From positions 434,001 to 498,000 of the forward strand of contig NZ_JACHIF010000002.1 in the NCBI RefSeq assembly GCF_014203045.1: a stretch of 64,000 bases of DNA, read 5' to 3'. The first letter of the stretch is position 1. Each line of letters starts with the position of its first letter. Position numbers and translations under genes: made by a program. Origin of the DNA: Prosthecobacter dejongeii (GTDB lineage Bacteria; Verrucomicrobiota; Verrucomicrobiia; Verrucomicrobiales; Verrucomicrobiaceae). The notes below the pieces were generated by a model. It saw only the letters and a list, made by a program, of their open reading frames with translations, searched no databases and had not been told where the DNA came from. Shown here piece after piece: positions 36-23,023 of this stretch.

Positions 36-875
36 ATGATTGTAAATGATAGCCAGCATCGCATGTCACTCGATCTCACCTCCATTGCCCTTATTGCCGG
101 GAACGGCATTTACCCAGAGACTTTTGTCAAAGCCGCGCGCCGTGCGGGGGTGCAGCGCTTGGTGGTGGCGGCCTTTGTCAATGAGACAAAACCAGAGCTC
201 GCTGCCATGGTGGACGCCATCGAATGGTTCCGCGTGGGTCAGCTTAGCAAAATGATCTCCTTTTTTGTTAGGCAAGGCATCAAGCAAACGGTGATGGTGG
301 GGCAGATCGCACCCAAAAATCTTTTCGACCTACGGCCCGACTTGCGGTTGCTCATGATGCTAGCGCGGCTGAAGCAGCGGAATGCCGAGACCTTGTTCGG
401 TGCCATTAGCGATGAGATGGCCAAAGATGGCATCACGCTCCTACCTGCCACCACTTTTCTCGAAGACCTCATGCCGGCGCGTGGTCATGTCGCAGGTCCC
501 ACCATCAAAAAACGTCGTTGGGAGGATGCGGACTACGGTTTCCACATCGCCAAAGAAAGCAGCCGTCTGGACATCGGTCAGACGGTCGTGGTGAAAAATG
601 GGACCGTTTTGGCTGTGGAGGCCTTTGAAGGAACCAATGAAGCGGTCAAGCGTGGCGGGGCCATGGGAAAAGGCGGCGCAACGATGGTCAAGGTTTCTAA
701 ACCCAACCAGGACATGCGTTTTGATGTCCCTGTGATCGGCCCAGACACCATTCGCACGGCTGCGGAGGCAGGGGTGGATTTGATTGCGGTAGAGGCTGGA
801 AAAACTTTATTGTTAAGCCTGGAAGAACTGCGCCAAGAATGTCACCAGAGAAAGGTCGCAGTTATCGCTTTGTGA
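36..875 (+). CDS. lpxI: UDP-2,3-diacylglucosamine pyrophosphatase LpxI
   Basis: LpxI releases UMP from UDP-2,3-diacylglucosamine to make lipid X, a cytoplasmic/peripheral step of lipid A synthesis; it replaces LpxH in some phyla. The 279-residue product has the family's N-terminal LIAGNG loop (residues 19-24), a central MVGQIAPKNLF-like segment and the C-terminal FDVPVIGPDTI motif, followed by a GVDLIAVEAGKTLLL stretch. Length matches the LpxI (DUF1009) family. A later ATG at 63 would leave only nine residues before the core and may be the true start. The gene stands alone; the second lipid A gene of the window, lpxD, lies 24 kb away. Confidence 0.9.
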   Translation: MIVNDSQHRMSLDLTSIALIAGNGIYPETFVKAARRAGVQRLVVAAFVNETKPELAAMVDAIEWFRVGQLSKMISFFVRQGIKQTVMVGQIAPKNLFDLRPDLRLLMMLARLKQRNAETLFGAISDEMAKDGITLLPATTFLEDLMPARGHVAGPTIKKRRWEDADYGFHIAKESSRLDIGQTVVVKNGTVLAVEAFEGTNEAVKRGGAMGKGGATMVKVSKPNQDMRFDVPVIGPDTIRTAAEAGVDLIAVEAGKTLLLSLEELRQECHQRKVAVIAL

Positions 876-16840: not shown

Positions 16841-17203
16841 ATGCTGAAAGTCTATGCCTATCAGGGTTGCTCCACCTGCAAAAATGCCCTCAAGTGGCTG
16901 AAGGCCCAGGGCATCGCCCATCAGGAAATCGCTATCCGCGAGACCCCGCCGACGGTGCCCGAGCTGCGCTCCATGCTCGCGGCTAAAGGTGATGACCTCC
17001 GCCCCCTTTTCAACACCTCCGGCCAGGACTACCGCGCCCTCGGCATGAAGGACAAACTGCCTGCGATGTCCACCGACGAAGCCCTGGCCATGCTCGCGGA
17101 GAATGGTAATCTGGTGAAGCGCCCCTTCGCGCTGGATGAGACGGCAGGTGTGCATCTGGTGGGCTTCAAAGAGAAGGAGTGGGCGGCGGCGCTGAAGCGT
17201 TAA
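16841..17203 (+). CDS. ArsC/Spx/MgsR-family thioredoxin-fold protein
   Basis: A 120-residue protein of the arsenate reductase-like family. The N-terminal active-site-like motif is C-S-T-C-K (residues 10-14), followed by a KWLKAQGI helix, an IRETPPT segment and a C-terminal LVKRPFAL segment with the conserved RP. Two cysteines spaced CxxC fit the Spx/MgsR/YffB branch rather than true ArsC. It could be a redox-sensing regulator or a glutathione-dependent reductase; arsenic genes are absent nearby. Confidence 0.82.
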   Translation: MLKVYAYQGCSTCKNALKWLKAQGIAHQEIAIRETPPTVPELRSMLAAKGDDLRPLFNTSGQDYRALGMKDKLPAMSTDEALAMLAENGNLVKRPFALDETAGVHLVGFKEKEWAAALKR

Positions 17204-17239
17204 GATCATTTCGATCTACGCACAATTCGTGCATCTTGC

Positions 17240-17267
17240 TTGTTGCGCATATGCTAATGTGTAATGT
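17240..17267 (+). promoter_or_regulatory. candidate promoter of the restriction-modification genes
   Basis: In the AT-rich gap before the R-M genes, TTGTTG (17240-17245) and TAATGT (17262-17267) sit 16 bases apart, a plausible sigma-70-type promoter about 30 bases ahead of the restriction gene. This is only a sequence match. Confidence 0.25.
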
Positions 17268-17297
17268 CCATCTATTTAAATTTTTCCTTTCCATAGT

Positions 17298-17948
17298 ATG
17301 CATAGTCGCCCCTTTGATCGCGAAGAACACGTCTATCGTAATGACGCTTTCGCTGAGTTGGTTAAAGACGGGGTCCGTTTTTTCAATGGCACGCCCGTTT
17401 TAGAATTGCCACCACAAGAGCGCTTTTGCGGCACAGGCGTTTATGCAATTTATTATACAGGAAAGTCTTCGATCTACGGGAAGTATGGCAAACTAAATCG
17501 GCTCTCCTACGGATATCCAATTTATGTCGGAAAGGCAGTTCCCAAAGGCTGGCGACAAGCACGCACCTCACATCTGAAAACAGATCGTTCAACTGAACTC
17601 TATCTGCGGCTTCGAGAGCACAGCCACAACATTGCAAAGGCCCCCGATCTCAATCCGAAGGATTTCATGTGTCGGTTCGTCATTTTTGAAGGTGACGGAT
17701 CGGACATGATTAGCACGGTTGAGGCCGCTCTGATCAAGATTACTCAACCTCTGTGGAATACTGTAGTGGATGGCTTTGGAAACCATACTCCGGGGAATGG
17801 CCGATTTGAGCAGGCCCGCAGCGCTTGGGATGTGATTCATCCAGGACGTGCTTGGGCCGATAAGTGCAAAGGTATAGCTGCGAAGCCGGAAGTGATCATT
17901 GAGCGCGTAAAGAAGCATCTCAGCACGCTAGGAGGCTCCGTAGTATGA
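17298..17948 (+). CDS. Eco29kI-type GIY-YIG restriction endonuclease
   Basis: A 216-residue type II restriction enzyme. The GIY-YIG core is GVYAIYYTG (47-55) and YPIYVGK (73-79). The residues I recall as catalytic in R.Eco29kI occur at the same numbers: Y49, Y76, R104, H108, E142 and N154, so the enzyme is probably active. Family members cut CCGCGG. The stop overlaps the methyltransferase start by four bases, as in the eco29kI locus where R precedes M. The gene is AT-richer than its surroundings, pointing to transfer. Confidence 0.93.
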   Translation: MHSRPFDREEHVYRNDAFAELVKDGVRFFNGTPVLELPPQERFCGTGVYAIYYTGKSSIYGKYGKLNRLSYGYPIYVGKAVPKGWRQARTSHLKTDRSTELYLRLREHSHNIAKAPDLNPKDFMCRFVIFEGDGSDMISTVEAALIKITQPLWNTVVDGFGNHTPGNGRFEQARSAWDVIHPGRAWADKCKGIAAKPEVIIERVKKHLSTLGGSVV

Positions 17949-19180
17949 GATCGGTAGAAATCTTCTCTGGTGCTGGTGGTCTTGCCAAAGGGCTTGATCT
18001 GGTCGGGTTTGATCATGCTGCGTTTGTCGAGTGGAATAAGGATGCTTGCTCCTCGCTCCGTCTTAATTTTTCACCGGAGAGGGTCTATTGTGGAGACATC
18101 AAAGACTACGACTTTAGTAAGTTGGGTCAGGTAGATGTCGTGGCAGGTGGACCACCTTGCCAGCCGTTCTCTTTGGGGGGCAAGCATCAGGCGAACTTGG
18201 ATCACCGGGATATGTTTCCATATGCGATTAGATCCATTGAAGTCCTTCAGCCCAAGCTCTTTATCTTCGAAAACGTGAAGGGCCTTCTCCGCGAATCTTT
18301 TGCCGACTATTTCTCATACATTTTGTTCCGCCTCGGGCATCCATGCTTGTCAGCGGAGCATGGCATTGATTGGCGCGATCACTTGAATGAGTTATTGGCG
18401 ATTAGTCCGCGCGCCAATAAAGGCACCAGATACAGTATATCGCACCGTCTGGTGAACGCAGCCGACTACGGTGTCCCCCAGTGTCGTGAGCGCGTTATCA
18501 TCGTCGGCGTGAGAGAGGATATTGATCAAAAATGGCAATTCCCCAAGGCGACTCATACCGAAGAACGGCTACTCTATGATCAATATGTGACAGGAGAGTA
18601 TTGGGACCGTCACCGGGTTCCCCAAAGCGAGAGGCCTCAACTCAGCCCTTCGCTCGCTGGAAGGATTGAAGCTATCAAAAGAGACTACGTTCTCTTTGCT
18701 CCCGAGGGAGAGCCTTGGAGAACAACCCGTGATGTCTTGGGAGATGTGCCTCATCCCAACGAAAACCATGGCATCCCAGATCATATTTTTCGCGACGGTG
18801 CCCGAAGTTATCCCGGGCACACCGGCAGTTGTTATGATCTTCCAGCCAAGACCATTAAAGCCGGAGGACACGGTGTACCTGGAGGTGAAAACATGATCCG
18901 CTACCCCGATGGCAGCATTCGGTATTTCACGGTCTTCGAGGCCAAACGCATCCAGACATTCCCTGACGACTACGTAATTACTGGCGCATGGGGCGAAGCC
19001 TTGCGCCAGATTGGAAATGCGGTGCCTGTTAAACTGGCGGAATGTCTTGGTAACGCTGCCAAAACTTTATTAACGACGCCCGCTAGTCATAGGCAGCCAC
19101 CAGAACAAAATTTGGTTGGGCGTCGAATGGCAATGGGATCAGCTTCTGAGAAATTTTCACCATCCCTTGCGCTTACATAA
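17945..19180 (+). CDS. DNA (cytosine-5-)-methyltransferase, partner of the Eco29kI-type enzyme
   Basis: A 411-residue C5-cytosine methyltransferase. Motif I is FSGAGG (7-12), motif IV GGPPCQPFS with the nucleophile C72, motif VI ENVKG, motif VIII QCRERVIIVG and motif X RQIGNAVP, with a target-recognition region between VIII and X. It would protect the host at the sites cut by the upstream nuclease, presumably CCGCGG. At least five CCGCGG sites occur in this window (3184, 40725, 44966, 47199, 63980), so loss of this enzyme should be harmful. The last 40 residues past motif X are a low-similarity tail. Confidence 0.95.
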   Translation: MRSVEIFSGAGGLAKGLDLVGFDHAAFVEWNKDACSSLRLNFSPERVYCGDIKDYDFSKLGQVDVVAGGPPCQPFSLGGKHQANLDHRDMFPYAIRSIEVLQPKLFIFENVKGLLRESFADYFSYILFRLGHPCLSAEHGIDWRDHLNELLAISPRANKGTRYSISHRLVNAADYGVPQCRERVIIVGVREDIDQKWQFPKATHTEERLLYDQYVTGEYWDRHRVPQSERPQLSPSLAGRIEAIKRDYVLFAPEGEPWRTTRDVLGDVPHPNENHGIPDHIFRDGARSYPGHTGSCYDLPAKTIKAGGHGVPGGENMIRYPDGSIRYFTVFEAKRIQTFPDDYVITGAWGEALRQIGNAVPVKLAECLGNAAKTLLTTPASHRQPPEQNLVGRRMAMGSASEKFSPSLALT

Positions 19181-19210
19181 TCTGCGCAGAAGCATTTCTT
19201 TGTATTCATA

Positions 19211-20545
19211 ATGAATCCTGACTTTACCACCATTGCCAGTGATAAGGCGGCTGGCTTATTCCCATCCTATATTGATTATATCAGATTTCCGCGTTTTCGC
19301 AATTTAGCGGCCAATGCCAGAGTTGATTTTGAATTTCCAATTACTGCATTTGTTGGGCAAAATGGCTGCGGTAAAAGCTCAGCCCTACAGGCGCTCTTTG
19401 GAGTACCCAAAGGCAAGTCTGTTAGTACTTATTGGTTCACGACCGCACTGGACCCAATTGAAAATCTAAGGCCAGAAGATCGGCATTGTTTCGTTTATTC
19501 ATACAATGGCACTGGAGATGAAGTAGTTAAGAGAAGAATCAACAAAAAAGGACAGCCAGACCTTTTCGACACTAGTGAACCAATTGCGGCATATGGAATG
19601 ACGATGGGGGTGCGGCACCCTCCAGTCGAAAAAGAGGTAATCTATATTAACTTTAGAGCCATTCCAAATGCCTTCGAAAAAGCGTTTCACAGAGTACGAC
19701 CGCCTACGCCGGGCATTCAGGGCCATTTGCGAATGCGCTCAAAAGTGTTAAGAAATGCCCTCGATAAGCAGTATGACTATCGCTTCTCAATAGAGTCGCG
19801 GCCTCAAGAATTTGTGATCCGTGAGGATATGCTTAGGGTTGCAGAGAAAATTTTGGGACGAAGTTACAGGGGCGCAAAGGTAGTGAAACACGCGCTTTTT
19901 GGAGAACCTGGTTATTCGGTTTTTTTAGAGACGGAGAAGGCGAAGTATACAGATGCATTTGCTGGCAGTGGAGAGTCGGCAGTTATGCTTTTACTACATG
20001 AACTGAGCTACGCAAAAAAAGGTTCCTTGCTACTGTTAGATGAACCGGAGACTTCATTGCATCCTGGTGCGCAGGAGGAACTCATGCGCTATCTGGCAAG
20101 CATTTGCATCAAGCAAAGAATTCAAATTGTGTTTTGTACGCACTCGCCAACTTTGATCAATGGCTTACCTCCAGCAGCCATAAAAGTATTTTCACCTGAC
20201 CCAAGCGGAACGTTTAGAATTGTACAAGGCGTTAGCTCTAGAGAGGCATTTGGATACATTGGACATCAAATCAGTGACAAGATGACCCTGAGAGTGGAAG
20301 ACAGGTTAGCTCAAATGATTCTGCAAAGAGTAATCGACGACGAAGTTGTGCCATGTGCGCACATGTTCGACATTTGCTTTATACCTGGAGGGTGTGATGA
20401 GATGAAAAAAGACTCAGTGGTTTTTTCTAGTCATGATCAGAAAAATGTCGTTATGATTTTAGATGGTGGTAAAAAACCGTCTGGTCCTTTAATGGATCCT
20501 TCAATGATCCCCAATTCTCAATATGAGGATTTATATTGGGGATAA
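19211..20545 (+). CDS. OLD-like AAA ATPase, N-terminal part of a frameshifted ATPase-Toprim protein
   Basis: A 444-residue ABC-type ATPase with Walker A GQNGCGKSS (49-57), a signature-like GSGESAVM and Walker B LLLLDEPETSLHPG (D near 277) followed by the H-loop THSPT. After residue 360 the start of a Toprim nuclease domain appears: RVEDRLA, then IPGGCDE, then VVMILDGG, where the second acid of the usual D-x-D is missing. The frame ends at 20545 inside that domain, and the remainder continues in another frame at 20536. It starts 30 bases after the methyltransferase gene and shares its AT-rich composition, so it probably belongs to the defence island. Confidence 0.85.
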   Translation: MNPDFTTIASDKAAGLFPSYIDYIRFPRFRNLAANARVDFEFPITAFVGQNGCGKSSALQALFGVPKGKSVSTYWFTTALDPIENLRPEDRHCFVYSYNGTGDEVVKRRINKKGQPDLFDTSEPIAAYGMTMGVRHPPVEKEVIYINFRAIPNAFEKAFHRVRPPTPGIQGHLRMRSKVLRNALDKQYDYRFSIESRPQEFVIREDMLRVAEKILGRSYRGAKVVKHALFGEPGYSVFLETEKAKYTDAFAGSGESAVMLLLHELSYAKKGSLLLLDEPETSLHPGAQEELMRYLASICIKQRIQIVFCTHSPTLINGLPPAAIKVFSPDPSGTFRIVQGVSSREAFGYIGHQISDKMTLRVEDRLAQMILQRVIDDEVVPCAHMFDICFIPGGCDEMKKDSVVFSSHDQKNVVMILDGGKKPSGPLMDPSMIPNSQYEDLYWG

Positions 20546-20991
20546 ATAAGATCTTTGATGATGCCATTGAGGCGATGACGGAGCTAAAAATGAAGACTTT
20601 ATGCTTGCCTTCGGATGGAGGTGACCAGGCACCTAATTTGCGGCAGAGTCAGCAGCGTGACATCAAGCGGCGATTTATCGAATTCTACAGAACGAGAGTA
20701 TTCTATTTACCAGAAATAGATCCTGAAGATTGTATCTGGGATGACGATACTGCTTGGAGGCTTTTTGAAATGTTTTTCGGCAGTAAAGGCTTAGATGAAT
20801 TTAAAGTAGAGTTGATGCAATTAAAAACCAAAAAAAAGTTTGAACAGCTAAGTTCAAAAATTTGCTCTAGAAGTGATGGCTTAACAATTGACGCGATTCA
20901 TCGGATGTTCATCACAAAATGGGCCGTACAGAAGCCTTCAAGCTATAAGGAAATTCAATCACTGCTCCAAGATGTCAAAAAGCTCATTTAA
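20536..20991 (+). CDS. C-terminal part of the OLD-like Toprim protein in a shifted frame
   Basis: This 151-residue reading has no good start of its own (TTG inside the preceding gene). Its beginning, KIFDDAIEAM...KTLCLP, and the following VFYLPEIDPEDCIWDD read as the continuation of the upstream Toprim domain, where OLD proteins have an LP...E-N-Y/L segment. One extra G in the run at 20538-20541 would fuse both parts into a protein of about 595 residues, a usual OLD-family size. Either a sequencing/assembly indel, a real inactivating mutation, or frameshifting could explain it. Confidence 0.7.
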   Translation: MGINKIFDDAIEAMTELKMKTLCLPSDGGDQAPNLRQSQQRDIKRRFIEFYRTRVFYLPEIDPEDCIWDDDTAWRLFEMFFGSKGLDEFKVELMQLKTKKKFEQLSSKICSRSDGLTIDAIHRMFITKWAVQKPSSYKEIQSLLQDVKKLI

Positions 20992-21030
20992 GAGTGCTTC
21001 TGTATTGGGGCCTGAATTCGATTTCCTACC

Positions 21031-21429
21031 ATGGCTGAATGCACCGACTTTTCCTGCAATGTCTGTGGTTTCAAAATCGAGTCTTGGAGCGATGGACATC
21101 CTTATTTGACGGATGGTTCGGGCAAACGCCACTTCTTTTATCATCCTGGGGATGAAGATGAGTGTCGCGAATTTTACCAGAAGGAGATGGGGCGTCTGAG
21201 GGTGGTCGAAAAAGACTATCTGGCTTTTTGGAGAGATCGAGGGGGCTGTGAGGTGAGCTTGATTTGCCTGCATTGTGGGCGGCAGACGCAGCGTGATCCG
21301 GAACGTGACACGATGCGTTGTACACACTGCCGCCGCAATGAACTAATGGACACTCAGGAACTGGAGGGCCGGAGCTGCCCGAAGTGTAAGAGAGGAGCTT
21401 TCTGCGGTGAGTTTGGCGGAATCTCTTGA
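21031..21429 (+). CDS. zinc-knuckle protein of unknown function
   Basis: A 132-residue soluble protein with several C-x-x-C pairs: CNVC near the start, CLHC followed by CTHC in the middle, and CPKC near the end, plus a final C-G. These would form two or more zinc ribbons. The middle has an acidic FYHPGDEDECREF segment. I do not recognise a specific family. It lies at the downstream edge of the AT-rich defence island; composition is intermediate, so it could belong either to the island or to the host backbone. Confidence 0.65.
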   Translation: MAECTDFSCNVCGFKIESWSDGHPYLTDGSGKRHFFYHPGDEDECREFYQKEMGRLRVVEKDYLAFWRDRGGCEVSLICLHCGRQTQRDPERDTMRCTHCRRNELMDTQELEGRSCPKCKRGAFCGEFGGIS

Positions 21430-21526
21430 GTCAGACCCGCCCTCACAAATCCTTCAAACGCGATCTGGCACTGCAATCCGATAGACAAGTTCCGGGTGGC
21501 ACGTTACAACGGGCCATTCTCCAACC

Positions 21527-22249
21527 ATGAAAGCACGTTTCCTCATTCCTGCCTTTGCCGCGCTGGCCTTCGCCGTCTCCGCTGCTGAACCTGTCCAGAT
21601 TTTTAATGGCAAAGACCTCACGGGCTGGGAGGGGAACAAGGATCTCTGGAGCGTGCAGGAGGGGACCATCACGGGCATCACGCCACCGGACCCGGCGGAC
21701 CCGACCAAGGGCATCATCAAGCATAACACCTTCCTCGTCTGGAAAGGCGGCACGGTGGGGGACTTTGAGCTGACCTTCAAATACCGCATCGAGAAGGGCA
21801 ATTCCGGCGTGCAGTATCGCAGCAAGGAACTCGCTGCCGGTACTTTTGGCCCAGTGCTCAGCGGTTACCAGGCCGACTTTGAAGCGGGCAAGAAATACAG
21901 CGGTATTCTCTACGAGGAAAAGGGCCGTGGCATCCTGGCCCTGCGCGGGGAAAAGACGGTGATCAAGCCAGCGGCTGACGGTGGCAAAAAGACCGTGGTC
22001 GAAAAAGCCGGCACGGTGGGTGATAGCGAAGCGATCCAGGCCAGCATCAAAAGCGAAGACTGGAACGAGTACAAGATCGTCGCCAAGGGCAACCACGTGC
22101 AGCATTTCATCAATGGTCAGCAGACCATCGACGTCACGGATGAAGACGCCGCCAATGCGCCGAAGGAAGGCCTGCTGGGCCTGCAGATCCACCAGGGCCC
22201 GCCGATGAAGGTGCAGTTCAAGGATTTCAACCTGGTCCCCTTGAAGTAG
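21527..22249 (+). CDS. secreted DUF1080 / 3-keto-disaccharide hydrolase-like protein
   Basis: A 240-residue secreted protein with a signal peptide (MKARFLIPAFAALAFAVSAA) and one DUF1080 domain, a concanavalin-like beta-sandwich. Typical signatures are FNGKDLTGWEG, the DFELTFKYRIEKGNSGVQYRS strand pair, WNEYKIVAKGNHVQHFING and the closing GLLGLQIHQGPPMKVQFKDF. Members bind or hydrolyse modified sugars and are greatly expanded in Verrucomicrobiota and Planctomycetota. The specific glycan is unknown. Confidence 0.9.
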   Translation: MKARFLIPAFAALAFAVSAAEPVQIFNGKDLTGWEGNKDLWSVQEGTITGITPPDPADPTKGIIKHNTFLVWKGGTVGDFELTFKYRIEKGNSGVQYRSKELAAGTFGPVLSGYQADFEAGKKYSGILYEEKGRGILALRGEKTVIKPAADGGKKTVVEKAGTVGDSEAIQASIKSEDWNEYKIVAKGNHVQHFINGQQTIDVTDEDAANAPKEGLLGLQIHQGPPMKVQFKDFNLVPLK

Positions 22250-22288
22250 GCATTGCCTATGCTGCCGGGCTGTCTTTAATCTACCGTT

Positions 22289-23023
22289 ATGTCTACACGC
22301 CCCCATTTGGTCAGAGCCGCGTTTCTCCTCCTGGTGACCATGGTGCTTTCCTGCACCGCTGCCCAGGCCCAGAATGAATACATCATTTGTTCTGGCGGCC
22401 CGGCTTTGAGAAAGTGGGAAGACCTGCGCCAGCCCGCGCAGCAGCATGATCGGTGGTGGGGAAACTTCGTCCGCCCGGCCCGTGTGCGCATGCAGGAACT
22501 GCAGCGCACCCAGCCGAAGGGCACCATCATCACCTGGCTGGTGTATCGGGATGCCTACCTGCGCCGTGCGGGGGAGGATCGCGATCCGCTGACCAGCCAC
22601 GTGGAGTCCGTGCAGAGCACCTACGGCATCAATCTGGTGTGGTTCCGCACAAAGGAAGACGTGATCAATTACATCAACCGGGGCGGCGGTTCCGTGTCCC
22701 GTGCCCGCAGCAAGATTTCGGGTTTTGAATTCTTCGGCCACTCGAACAAGTACTGCTTCCTCTTTGATTACAGCTCGGACGTGTATGCTGCCTCCACCAC
22801 TTGGCTGCATGAAAATGATTTGCCACGACTGCATCGCAGCGCCTTTGCCCGTGGGGCCTATTGCCAGAGCTGGGGCTGCCACACTGGGGAAAGCATGAGC
22901 CGGGCCTGGAAACGGGCCACAGGGGCGCCGATGATCGGCGCGATCGGCAAGACGGACTACTCCTTCATGCACCTGCGCGGTTGGAAGGTGGCGTTGGGCC
23001 AGGGCGGACGCTGGACGCAGTAG
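22289..23023 (+). CDS. secreted protein with caspase/CHAT-like His-Cys motifs
   Basis: A 244-residue protein with a signal peptide ending about residue 27. Near residues 145-200 it carries FEFFGHSN (H151) and, 46 residues on, CQSWGCHTGES (C197). This spacing and the hydrophobic strand before each resemble the His/Cys dyad of clan CD peptidases (caspase, CHAT, gingipain), so a peptidase-like fold is possible. No known family is recognised with certainty. It follows the DUF1080 gene by 39 bases in the same direction. Confidence 0.6.
   Translation: MSTRPHLVRAAFLLLVTMVLSCTAAQAQNEYIICSGGPALRKWEDLRQPAQQHDRWWGNFVRPARVRMQELQRTQPKGTIITWLVYRDAYLRRAGEDRDPLTSHVESVQSTYGINLVWFRTKEDVINYINRGGGSVSRARSKISGFEFFGHSNKYCFLFDYSSDVYAASTTWLHENDLPRLHRSAFARGAYCQSWGCHTGESMSRAWKRATGAPMIGAIGKTDYSFMHLRGWKVALGQGGRWTQ

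What the first reader, a model, noticed from the sequence alone, without database searches (positions are those of the whole stretch)
20500..20991. OLD-like ATPase-nuclease split by a one-base frameshift in a G run
Two frames at 19211-20545 and 20536-20991 read as one OLD-type protein: the ATPase and the Toprim entry motifs (VEDRLA, IPGGCDE, ILDGG) lie in the first, and the rest of the Toprim in the second. One extra G at 20538-20541 gives about 595 residues. It may be a sequencing error, real inactivation of a costly defence gene, or frameshift expression. The second acid of the Toprim D-x-D is already missing.
Basis: partly seen in the sequence, partly recalled or inferred. Interest (0 to 1): 0.65.

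Follow-up and report, generated by a model that had tools for sequence, protein, structure and literature searches.

The report
Broken ATPase-nuclease beside restriction genes
A bacterial anti-virus-type ATPase-nuclease gene that follows a restriction-modification gene pair is cut in two by a frame slip inside its nuclease domain, while the ten relatives found elsewhere are whole and nearly all lie in gene clusters with a DNA methylation gene.

Summary
Frames 19211-20545 (444 aa) and 20536-20991 (151 aa) match the two ends of one ~595-residue ABC ATPase-Toprim protein. All 10 outside relatives found are single frames of 576-620 aa. The slip lies somewhere in 20527-20545; the G run is one candidate only. 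The missing second acid of D-x-D is not evidence of decay: an intact same-genus relative lacks it too, and the single mutant of a related enzyme still cuts (PMC6755086). The gene is third in an Eco29kI-type restriction-modification (R-M) operon. 9 of 10 relatives share a gene cluster with a cytosine methyltransferase, with varying restriction enzymes: an R-M-associated branch of the OLD superfamily. Its Toprim half most resembles PARIS and OLD Toprim structures, with modest scores. Among 71 ORFs (80.8 kb) compared with a close species, one has an out-of-frame stretch at its unaligned start and none has a break inside, so an error is less likely than a real, probably inactivating mutation. A same-genus genome carries the R-M pair without the gene. 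Programmed frameshifting has no support; two-chain expression is not excluded. No reads were available.

The parts
17298..17948 (+). Eco29kI-family (GIY-YIG) restriction endonuclease, first gene of the operon
   Evidence: PF09517 RE_Eco29kI, E 9.1e-68, whole profile 1-164; PADLOC REase_II E 7.8e-109
17945..19180 (+). C5-cytosine DNA methyltransferase, overlaps the endonuclease gene by 4 bases
   Evidence: PF00145 E 1.4e-57; PADLOC MTase_II E 8.8e-160
19211..20545 (+). First frame of the split gene: ABC ATPase domain plus the first part of the Toprim domain (444 aa)
   Evidence: PF13175 AAA_15 E 9.3e-20; 43% identity to intact relative residues 10-449
20536..20991 (+). Second frame: rest of the Toprim and the C-terminal helical part (151 aa from the first possible start codon; open from 20527)
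   Evidence: matches residues 477-593 of intact relative, E 4e-12; keeps all 4 family-invariant residues of this part, P, E, W, K
20527..20545 (+). Overlap of the two frames, where the slip must lie if it is a single event
   Evidence: stop codons of the two frames bound it
20507..20515 (+). Left arm of a perfect 9-base inverted repeat ending at the junction; meaning unknown
   Evidence: 22 such sites per 64 kb
20535..20543 (+). Right arm of the same inverted repeat, inside the overlap
17198..21431 (.). Stretch without a match in the collinear close relative G1167: the R-M island, plus a 132-aa ORF at 21031-21429 with no clear family
   Evidence: collinear blocks end at 17197 and resume at 21432

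Best explanation
The gene encodes one ABC ATPase-Toprim protein of the OLD superfamily, recruited as an accessory or backup effector to a type II, Eco29kI-like R-M operon. In this genome a real frame slip inside the Toprim domain has cut it after the D-x-D motif. The main product would be a 444-aa protein with a full ATPase but half a Toprim domain. It would lack the C-terminal part that in characterised OLD enzymes carries the second metal site and a catalytic lysine, so nuclease activity is most likely lost, while the endonuclease-methyltransferase pair remains whole. Shown: the split, intact relatives, R-M context, no comparable break inside neighbouring genes, the same R-M pair without the gene in a same-genus genome. 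Inferred: that the slip is a true mutation, that the product is inactive, and that the intact family acts as an effector coupled to R-M.
For: 10 of 10 relatives are uninterrupted frames of 576-620 aa. The junction lies within the modelled Toprim domain: the intact relative's C-terminal part (pLDDT 88.5) matches PARIS chain 8ux9_A Z 10.1, BpOLD Z 8.6, XccOLD Z 7.9, TsOLD Z 7.3. No frame break inside any of 71 ORFs (80.8 kb) compared with G1167; one out-of-frame stretch at the unaligned start of one ORF. R-M context: RE_Eco29kI and C5 methyltransferase upstream; 9 of 10 relatives with a C5 methyltransferase in the same cluster, against 0 of 6 distant-ATPase loci (4 of them under 4 kb) and 0 of 11 other stretches. 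Dispensable: same-genus G1245 has endonuclease 77% and methyltransferase 80% identical with no ATPase-Toprim in its 16-kb locus. The ATPase gene is 39-46% GC, lower than the pair (51-53%) and than all flanking 500-base windows (49-61%).
Against: No reads, so an assembly or sequencing error is not excluded. The second frame shows no decay: no further stop, all 4 invariant residues kept; overall 7 of 65 family-invariant positions differ, within the 0-13 seen for relatives left out one by one. That fits a recent mutation, an error, or two chains that still work together. L028, 1 of 10 relatives, has no methyltransferase in the 16 kb examined, though an HpaII-type enzyme lies near it.
Confidence: 0.6

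Rival explanations
1. The break is a sequencing or assembly error and the genome carries a whole ~595-aa ATPase-Toprim gene.
For: All 10 relatives found are whole; the second frame is undecayed; the overlap contains a short G run; 1 of 71 neighbouring ORFs shows an out-of-frame match at its unaligned start, which could be another frame difference.
Against: No frame break inside 71 ORFs and 80.8 kb compared with a close species. If errors are uniform, none in 80.8 kb gives an upper bound of about 7% for a 1.8-kb gene; counting the one doubtful start, about 12%. A run of four is short for homopolymer error (recalled).
Confidence: 0.22
2. The two frames are expressed as two chains: translation restarts at the TTG at 20536, and the chains form a working ATPase-Toprim complex, as ATPase and Toprim are separate proteins in PARIS.
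For: An AGGA lies 6 bases before the TTG; the frames overlap like coupled genes; the second frame is undecayed.
Against: 10 of 10 relatives are single chains. The break lies inside the Toprim, not between ATPase and Toprim as in PARIS. Ribosome-binding-like motifs precede 2 of 22 checked genes here, about the rate of random 20-mers (9.8%), so the motif carries little weight.
Confidence: 0.13
3. Programmed frameshifting, transcript slippage or phase variation makes a full-length protein from the gene as it stands.
For: The frames differ by one position and overlap; R-M genes in other bacteria use long repeat tracts for switching (search listing).
Against: No X-XXY-YYZ heptamer in the overlap by direct reading (the motif rule is recalled); the G run is 4 where PhasomeIt used at least 7 for G/C tracts in Campylobacter (PMC6321876, passages); none of the 10 relatives is split.
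Confidence: 0.05

Closest known systems
HEC-04 / IbfA (PADLOC PDLC04149; single ABC ATPase-Toprim defence protein)
   Same: Best PADLOC profile for the window's first frame (E 2.4e-32) and for the first relative; it hits 10 of 10 relatives (best 2.3e-37). Same ATPase-Toprim order; reported anti-phage activity (PMC12111858, abstract and passages).
   Different: The best stretch covers only the middle (window 195-420 to profile 156-377 of 494). HEC-04 was named from Hma loci; the loci here hold C5 methyltransferases and, in several, type II restriction enzymes.
OLD family nucleases, classes 1-3 (TsOLD 6p74, BpOLD 6nk8, XccOLD 6njv, GajA, Retron-Eco8)
   Same: Whole-model Foldseek top hit is TsOLD (E 1.1e-12, but TM only 0.31); Toprim part aligns with BpOLD Z 8.6 over 164 residues, TsOLD Z 7.3 over 126.
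   Different: Not stand-alone, no UvrD-like helicase or reverse transcriptase among the 8 window ORFs scanned; found instead with C5 methyltransferases.
PARIS AriA/AriB (class 4 OLD)
   Same: Toprim part of the intact relative matches PARIS chain 8ux9_A best (Z 10.1, rmsd 3.9, 168 residues); I take this chain as AriB because chain B is listed as AriA. AriA profiles hit 10 of 10 relatives.
   Different: PARIS keeps ATPase and Toprim apart or fused at the domain border; here one chain is cut inside the Toprim. I know of no tRNA cleavage shown for this family.
TOPRIM-linked OLD-ABC backup effectors of BREX and BREX-related systems (PMC12839542, passages)
   Same: Same idea: an ATPase-Toprim unit recruited to a modification-based defence locus.
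   Different: Host systems here are C5-methyltransferase R-M operons (Eco29kI, HpaII, MvaI/BcnI) and methyltransferase-GHKL-Vsr loci.

Membership tests
OLD superfamily (ABC ATPase-Toprim) | N-terminal ABC-type ATPase domain | tested here: met
   AAA_15 E 9.3e-20, AAA_21 E 1.8e-19 on the window frame; 10 of 10 relatives; fold match to OLD, PtuA and SMC/Rad50 heads
OLD superfamily (ABC ATPase-Toprim) | C-terminal Toprim fold with Glu and D-x-D | tested here: inconclusive
   Intact relatives: Glu 10 of 10, D-x-D 9 of 10; rows 1-11 of the fold comparison are PARIS, OLD or retron chains (Z 10.1-6.6) but unrelated Rossmann-like folds follow from Z 6.3, Foldseek E is only 4.8e-3, and no Pfam Toprim family hits. 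Window: Glu and first Asp kept, second Asp is Gly, domain split.
OLD superfamily (ABC ATPase-Toprim) | Two-metal nuclease activity | not testable with these tools
   needs protein
OLD classes 1-3 | ATPase and Toprim in one chain | tested here: not met
   Met by 10 of 10 relatives; not met by the window gene as sequenced
OLD class 2 (Gabija) / class 3 (retron) | UvrD-like helicase or reverse transcriptase in the operon | tested here: not met
   8 window ORFs scanned with Pfam: none is a helicase or reverse transcriptase
PARIS (class 4) | ATPase (AriA) and Toprim (AriB) separable at the domain border | tested here: not met
   The break lies after the D-x-D, inside the Toprim
HEC-04 / IbfA | Full-length match to the HEC-04 profile | tested here: inconclusive
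   Best profile of the library for the window frame, but only 156-377 of 494 positions in the best stretch; Toprim part 4.1e-06 at best, 5 of 10 relatives
Eco29kI-type type II R-M | GIY-YIG Eco29kI endonuclease with adjacent C5 methyltransferase | tested here: met
   about 67% identity to plasmid-borne annotated Eco29kI-family endonucleases over 97%
Eco29kI-type type II R-M | Cleavage and methylation specificity of Eco29kI | not testable with these tools
   needs enzyme assay

The most novel reading that the evidence does not exclude
Intact members are R-M-linked, PARIS-like guards: a fused ATPase-Toprim protein encoded in clusters with C5 methyltransferases senses that restriction has failed or been inhibited and then cuts tRNA or DNA to abort the infection. 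The same module has been attached in turn to Eco29kI, HpaII, MvaI/BcnI and methyltransferase-GHKL-Vsr loci. The window genome would be a lineage that silenced this costly guard and kept the ordinary R-M pair.
Probability: 0.15. Interest if true: 0.6.

Novelty: new variant of a known kind. Interest (0 to 1): 0.35.

Why it matters
The broken gene alone is an ordinary event. Its family is more useful: ATPase-Toprim proteins tied to cytosine methyltransferases and different type II restriction enzymes, a context that the OLD class schemes I saw (PMC10568477 and PMC12796447, passages only) do not list in those passages. If intact members act only when restriction fails, type II R-M operons would carry their own second line of defence, and natural copies with and without the module (L029, G1245, the window) would allow a direct test of its cost and benefit.

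Tried and rejected
Rejected: (1) the second frame as an unrelated gene, because it matches the C-terminus of 8 of 10 relatives. The Pfam hit DrrA_P4M for it (E 3.1e-4) is below that family's cut-off and was taken as chance. (2) Missing second acid as a sign of decay: an intact same-genus copy has T there, and single substitutions including D457A had no discernible effect on BpOLD cleavage (PMC6755086, passages). (3) The 9-base inverted repeat at the junction as proof of a palindrome-driven mutation: 22 such sites in 64 kb, and 0.42 expected in this gene by simple base shuffles against 1 seen. (4) Ribosome-binding site before the TTG as proof of restart.

Led nowhere: the first genome-contig scan with the single protein, the viral-contig scan, phage records, plasmid records (22 records with the window frame, 32 with the relative, all under 60% identity), and sequence search of the Toprim part against solved structures (no OLD hit). 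Four weaker phylum hits (G063, G383, G028, G287; 29-33% identity over part of the protein) were not counted as family members.

Frameshift survey: the first screen flagged 5 of 43 and 4 of 44 ORFs with more than one frame; set against the table these are, by my reading, antisense or out-of-frame ORFs or upstream extensions. In one search I dropped 5 of 76 rows under 75% identity (listed), leaving 71. Three of the 71 had unequal ends: two were re-read and are single-frame; the third (21443-22972) is antisense to two real genes, which are whole and in one frame in G1167 (99.6% and 98.4%). A more sensitive search found a second-frame match for 1 of 71 ORFs, at window coordinates -6847 to -5741 (left of the window), limited to its first ~50 residues; matches there fall in two further frames, which fits untranslated DNA before the true start, but a frame difference in either genome is not excluded.

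Literature: searches found no description of ATPase-Toprim proteins in C5 type II R-M operons among the listings and passages that I saw; no paper was read whole. The library lacks most subscription papers, and a 2020 survey of ABC ATPases that I recall was not held.

Full report
OBSERVATION. The first carries an ABC-type ATPase (AAA_15 E 9.3e-20). The second has no convincing family match of its own. The frame slip must lie between the stop of the second frame at 20524-20526 and that of the first at 20543-20545. The G run at 20538-20541 is inside this interval but is not singled out by any evidence here.

RELATIVES. I found ten outside relatives: G052, Mesonia oceanica and a gammaproteobacterial MAG, three more in the class of the Mesonia genome, and four in the window's own order, one of them in the same genus. 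All ten are uninterrupted single frames of 576-620 aa.

ACTIVE SITE. In the alignment the Toprim Glu is kept in all ten relatives and in the window. The D-x-D is D-G-D in 9 of 10, D-G-T in the intact same-genus L029, and D-G-G in the window. In BpOLD the single substitutions, D457A among them, had no discernible effect on cleavage, whereas triple changes abolished cleavage of linear DNA (PMC6755086, passages). Cran1, a class 5 OLD protein with reported nickase activity, is described with a Leu among its predicted metal-site residues (PMC12796447, passages). So the missing second acid is not evidence of decay. The four family-invariant residues of the C-terminal part (P, E, W, K) are all kept in the window's second frame, and over the whole protein the window differs at 7 of 65 invariant positions, against 0-13 for relatives left out in turn. 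By analogy with BpOLD (second metal site E508, catalytic K562) the conserved E and K may be the second metal ligand and the lysine. If so, the 444-aa product lacks them. This is inference.

FOLD. The model of an intact relative (595 aa, mean pLDDT 84.8) has TsOLD as Foldseek top hit (E 1.1e-12, TM 0.31 by query length). VIA rows are dominated by the ATPase part (SMC, Rad50, PtuA, Z 15-18; TsOLD Z 15.6 spanning residues 22-593 but with rmsd 12.3). The C-terminal 234 residues folded alone (pLDDT 88.5) give PARIS chains 8ux9_A Z 10.1 (168 residues, rmsd 3.9) and 8v46_D Z 9.1 (taken as AriB, since the other PARIS chains are listed as AriA), BpOLD Z 8.6, XccOLD Z 7.9, Retron-Eco8 Z 7.3, TsOLD Z 7.3 and GajA Z 6.6; the first eleven rows are all PARIS, OLD or retron proteins, and unrelated Rossmann-like folds start at row 12 with Z 6.3. 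Foldseek alone is weaker (best E 4.8e-3, XccOLD), and no Pfam Toprim family hits any of the ten. The Toprim assignment therefore rests on motifs, the HEC-01B and HEC-04 profile matches (6 and 5 of 10 members, best 1.2e-4 and 4.1e-6) and this fold comparison.

OPERON. Upstream lie an Eco29kI-family endonuclease (17298-17948) and a C5 methyltransferase (17945-19180) overlapping by four bases, both whole by profile coverage. The ATPase gene starts 30 bases after the methyltransferase and is poorer in G+C (39-46%, against 51-53% for the pair and 49-61% in the flanking 500-base windows). The close species G1167 is collinear on both sides, at 92.8% and 93.9% identity in the flanking blocks, but holds about 3 kb of other DNA between the blocks ending at 17197 and resuming at 21432; G190 holds about 1 kb there. 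So this is a variable site that holds an R-M island here. The nearest relatives of the R-M pair lack the ATPase-Toprim gene where it could be seen: G1245 (endonuclease 77%, methyltransferase 80%, 16-kb locus), G1268 (71% and 79%; contig ends about 2.2 kb after the methyltransferase) and G1448 (53% and 53%; contig ends 236 bases after the match). Only G1245 gives a wide view on both sides.

FAMILY CONTEXT. Of the ten relatives, nine have a C5 methyltransferase on the same strand in the same cluster: directly next to the ATPase-Toprim gene in four (L020, L021, L029, L030), one to three genes away in five (L007, L011, L018, L019, L027); L028 has none in 16 kb. Six of the nine were confirmed by Pfam, the others by similarity to these. 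The same query set found none in 6 loci of distant ATPases (four of them under 4 kb, so a weak control) and none in 11 other stretches of 8-20 kb, leaving out L055, which was fetched for its R-M pair. Partners differ: HpaII-type beside L027 and near L028; Vsr, a second methyltransferase and an MvaI/BcnI enzyme in L020; Vsr plus GHKL ATPase in L007, L018 and L019; GHKL in L011. In L021, L029 and L030 none of the 2, 3 and 3 further neighbours scanned belongs to a type II restriction family (one L030 neighbour is an Exo_endo_phos protein), so there the ATPase-Toprim protein may itself be the restricting partner. Methyltransferase-GHKL-Vsr neighbourhoods resemble those described for MORC and paraMORC (PMC2292703, passages). 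In BREX loci, TOPRIM-linked OLD ATPases have been called backup suicidal effectors (PMC12839542, passages).

ERROR OR MUTATION. Comparing 134 kb of the window's contig with 108 kb of G1167 gave 71 ORFs at 75% identity or more and 80,778 aligned coding bases (at least one of the 71 is antisense, and the two real genes it hid are whole). None shows a break inside. One ORF left of the window has out-of-frame matches confined to its first ~50 residues, which fits DNA before the true start but could be a frame difference. If errors were evenly spread, the upper bound for an error in this gene is about 7%, or about 12% if that one is counted. Low coverage at this spot cannot be ruled out without reads. 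A true mutation of a dispensable, possibly costly gene fits all results; the lack of decay says it is recent.

EXPRESSION ALTERNATIVES. By direct reading there is no slippery heptamer in the overlap, and the G run is shorter than the 7 used for switching tracts in Campylobacter (PMC6321876, passages). Restart at TTG 20536 has an AGGA 6 bases upstream, but such motifs precede only 2 of 22 checked genes here, close to the 9.8% of random 20-mers, so the motif carries little weight in this genome. Two-chain function remains possible.

VERDICT. Observation confirmed. The most likely reading is a recently broken accessory ATPase-Toprim gene of an R-M operon. The broken gene is ordinary. The wider family, R-M-linked and near PARIS and OLD proteins in fold, is the part worth following.

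Noticed in passing
20507-20515 and 20535-20543: Perfect 9-base inverted repeat whose right arm lies in the frame overlap, with (by reading) a smaller palindrome in the loop; possible footprint of a palindrome-templated mutation, but not significant by itself.
   Followed up: partly
window 19211-20545, alignment columns 139-195: Six of the seven departures from family-invariant residues (columns 139, 140, 182, 187, 191, 195) fall in one stretch, around INFRAIPNAFEKAFH; local relaxation or adaptation to another partner.
   Followed up: no
17198-21431: Variable site between an ArsC-like gene and a 3-keto-disaccharide hydrolase gene: R-M island here, about 3 kb of other genes in G1167, about 1 kb in G190.
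   Followed up: partly
whole window: Ribosome-binding-like motifs precede only 2 of 22 checked genes, close to the random rate; this lineage may often start translation without them.
   Followed up: partly
L020:358-6200: Locus with two C5 methyltransferases, ATPase-Toprim, Vsr and an MvaI/BcnI endonuclease in a row: possibly two R-M systems side by side.
   Followed up: partly
L011:1300-5385, L018:2767-7411, L019:4809-7814: In three loci the GHKL protein carries a HEF_HK domain, and in two of them (L011, L018) the next gene has a Response_reg_2 receiver domain: a two-component-like pair between methyltransferase and ATPase-Toprim.
   Followed up: no
L027:4092-5051: A Fic/Doc-family gene lies convergent to the intact ATPase-Toprim gene of this HpaII R-M locus.
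   Followed up: no
G1239:C8:34730-35752: The lpxD-like match of this same-genus genome contains one TGA inside the frame; error or pseudogene.
   Followed up: no
21031-21429: 132-aa cysteine-rich ORF just after the split gene, in the stretch without a match in G1167, with only weak zinc-ribbon matches.
   Followed up: no
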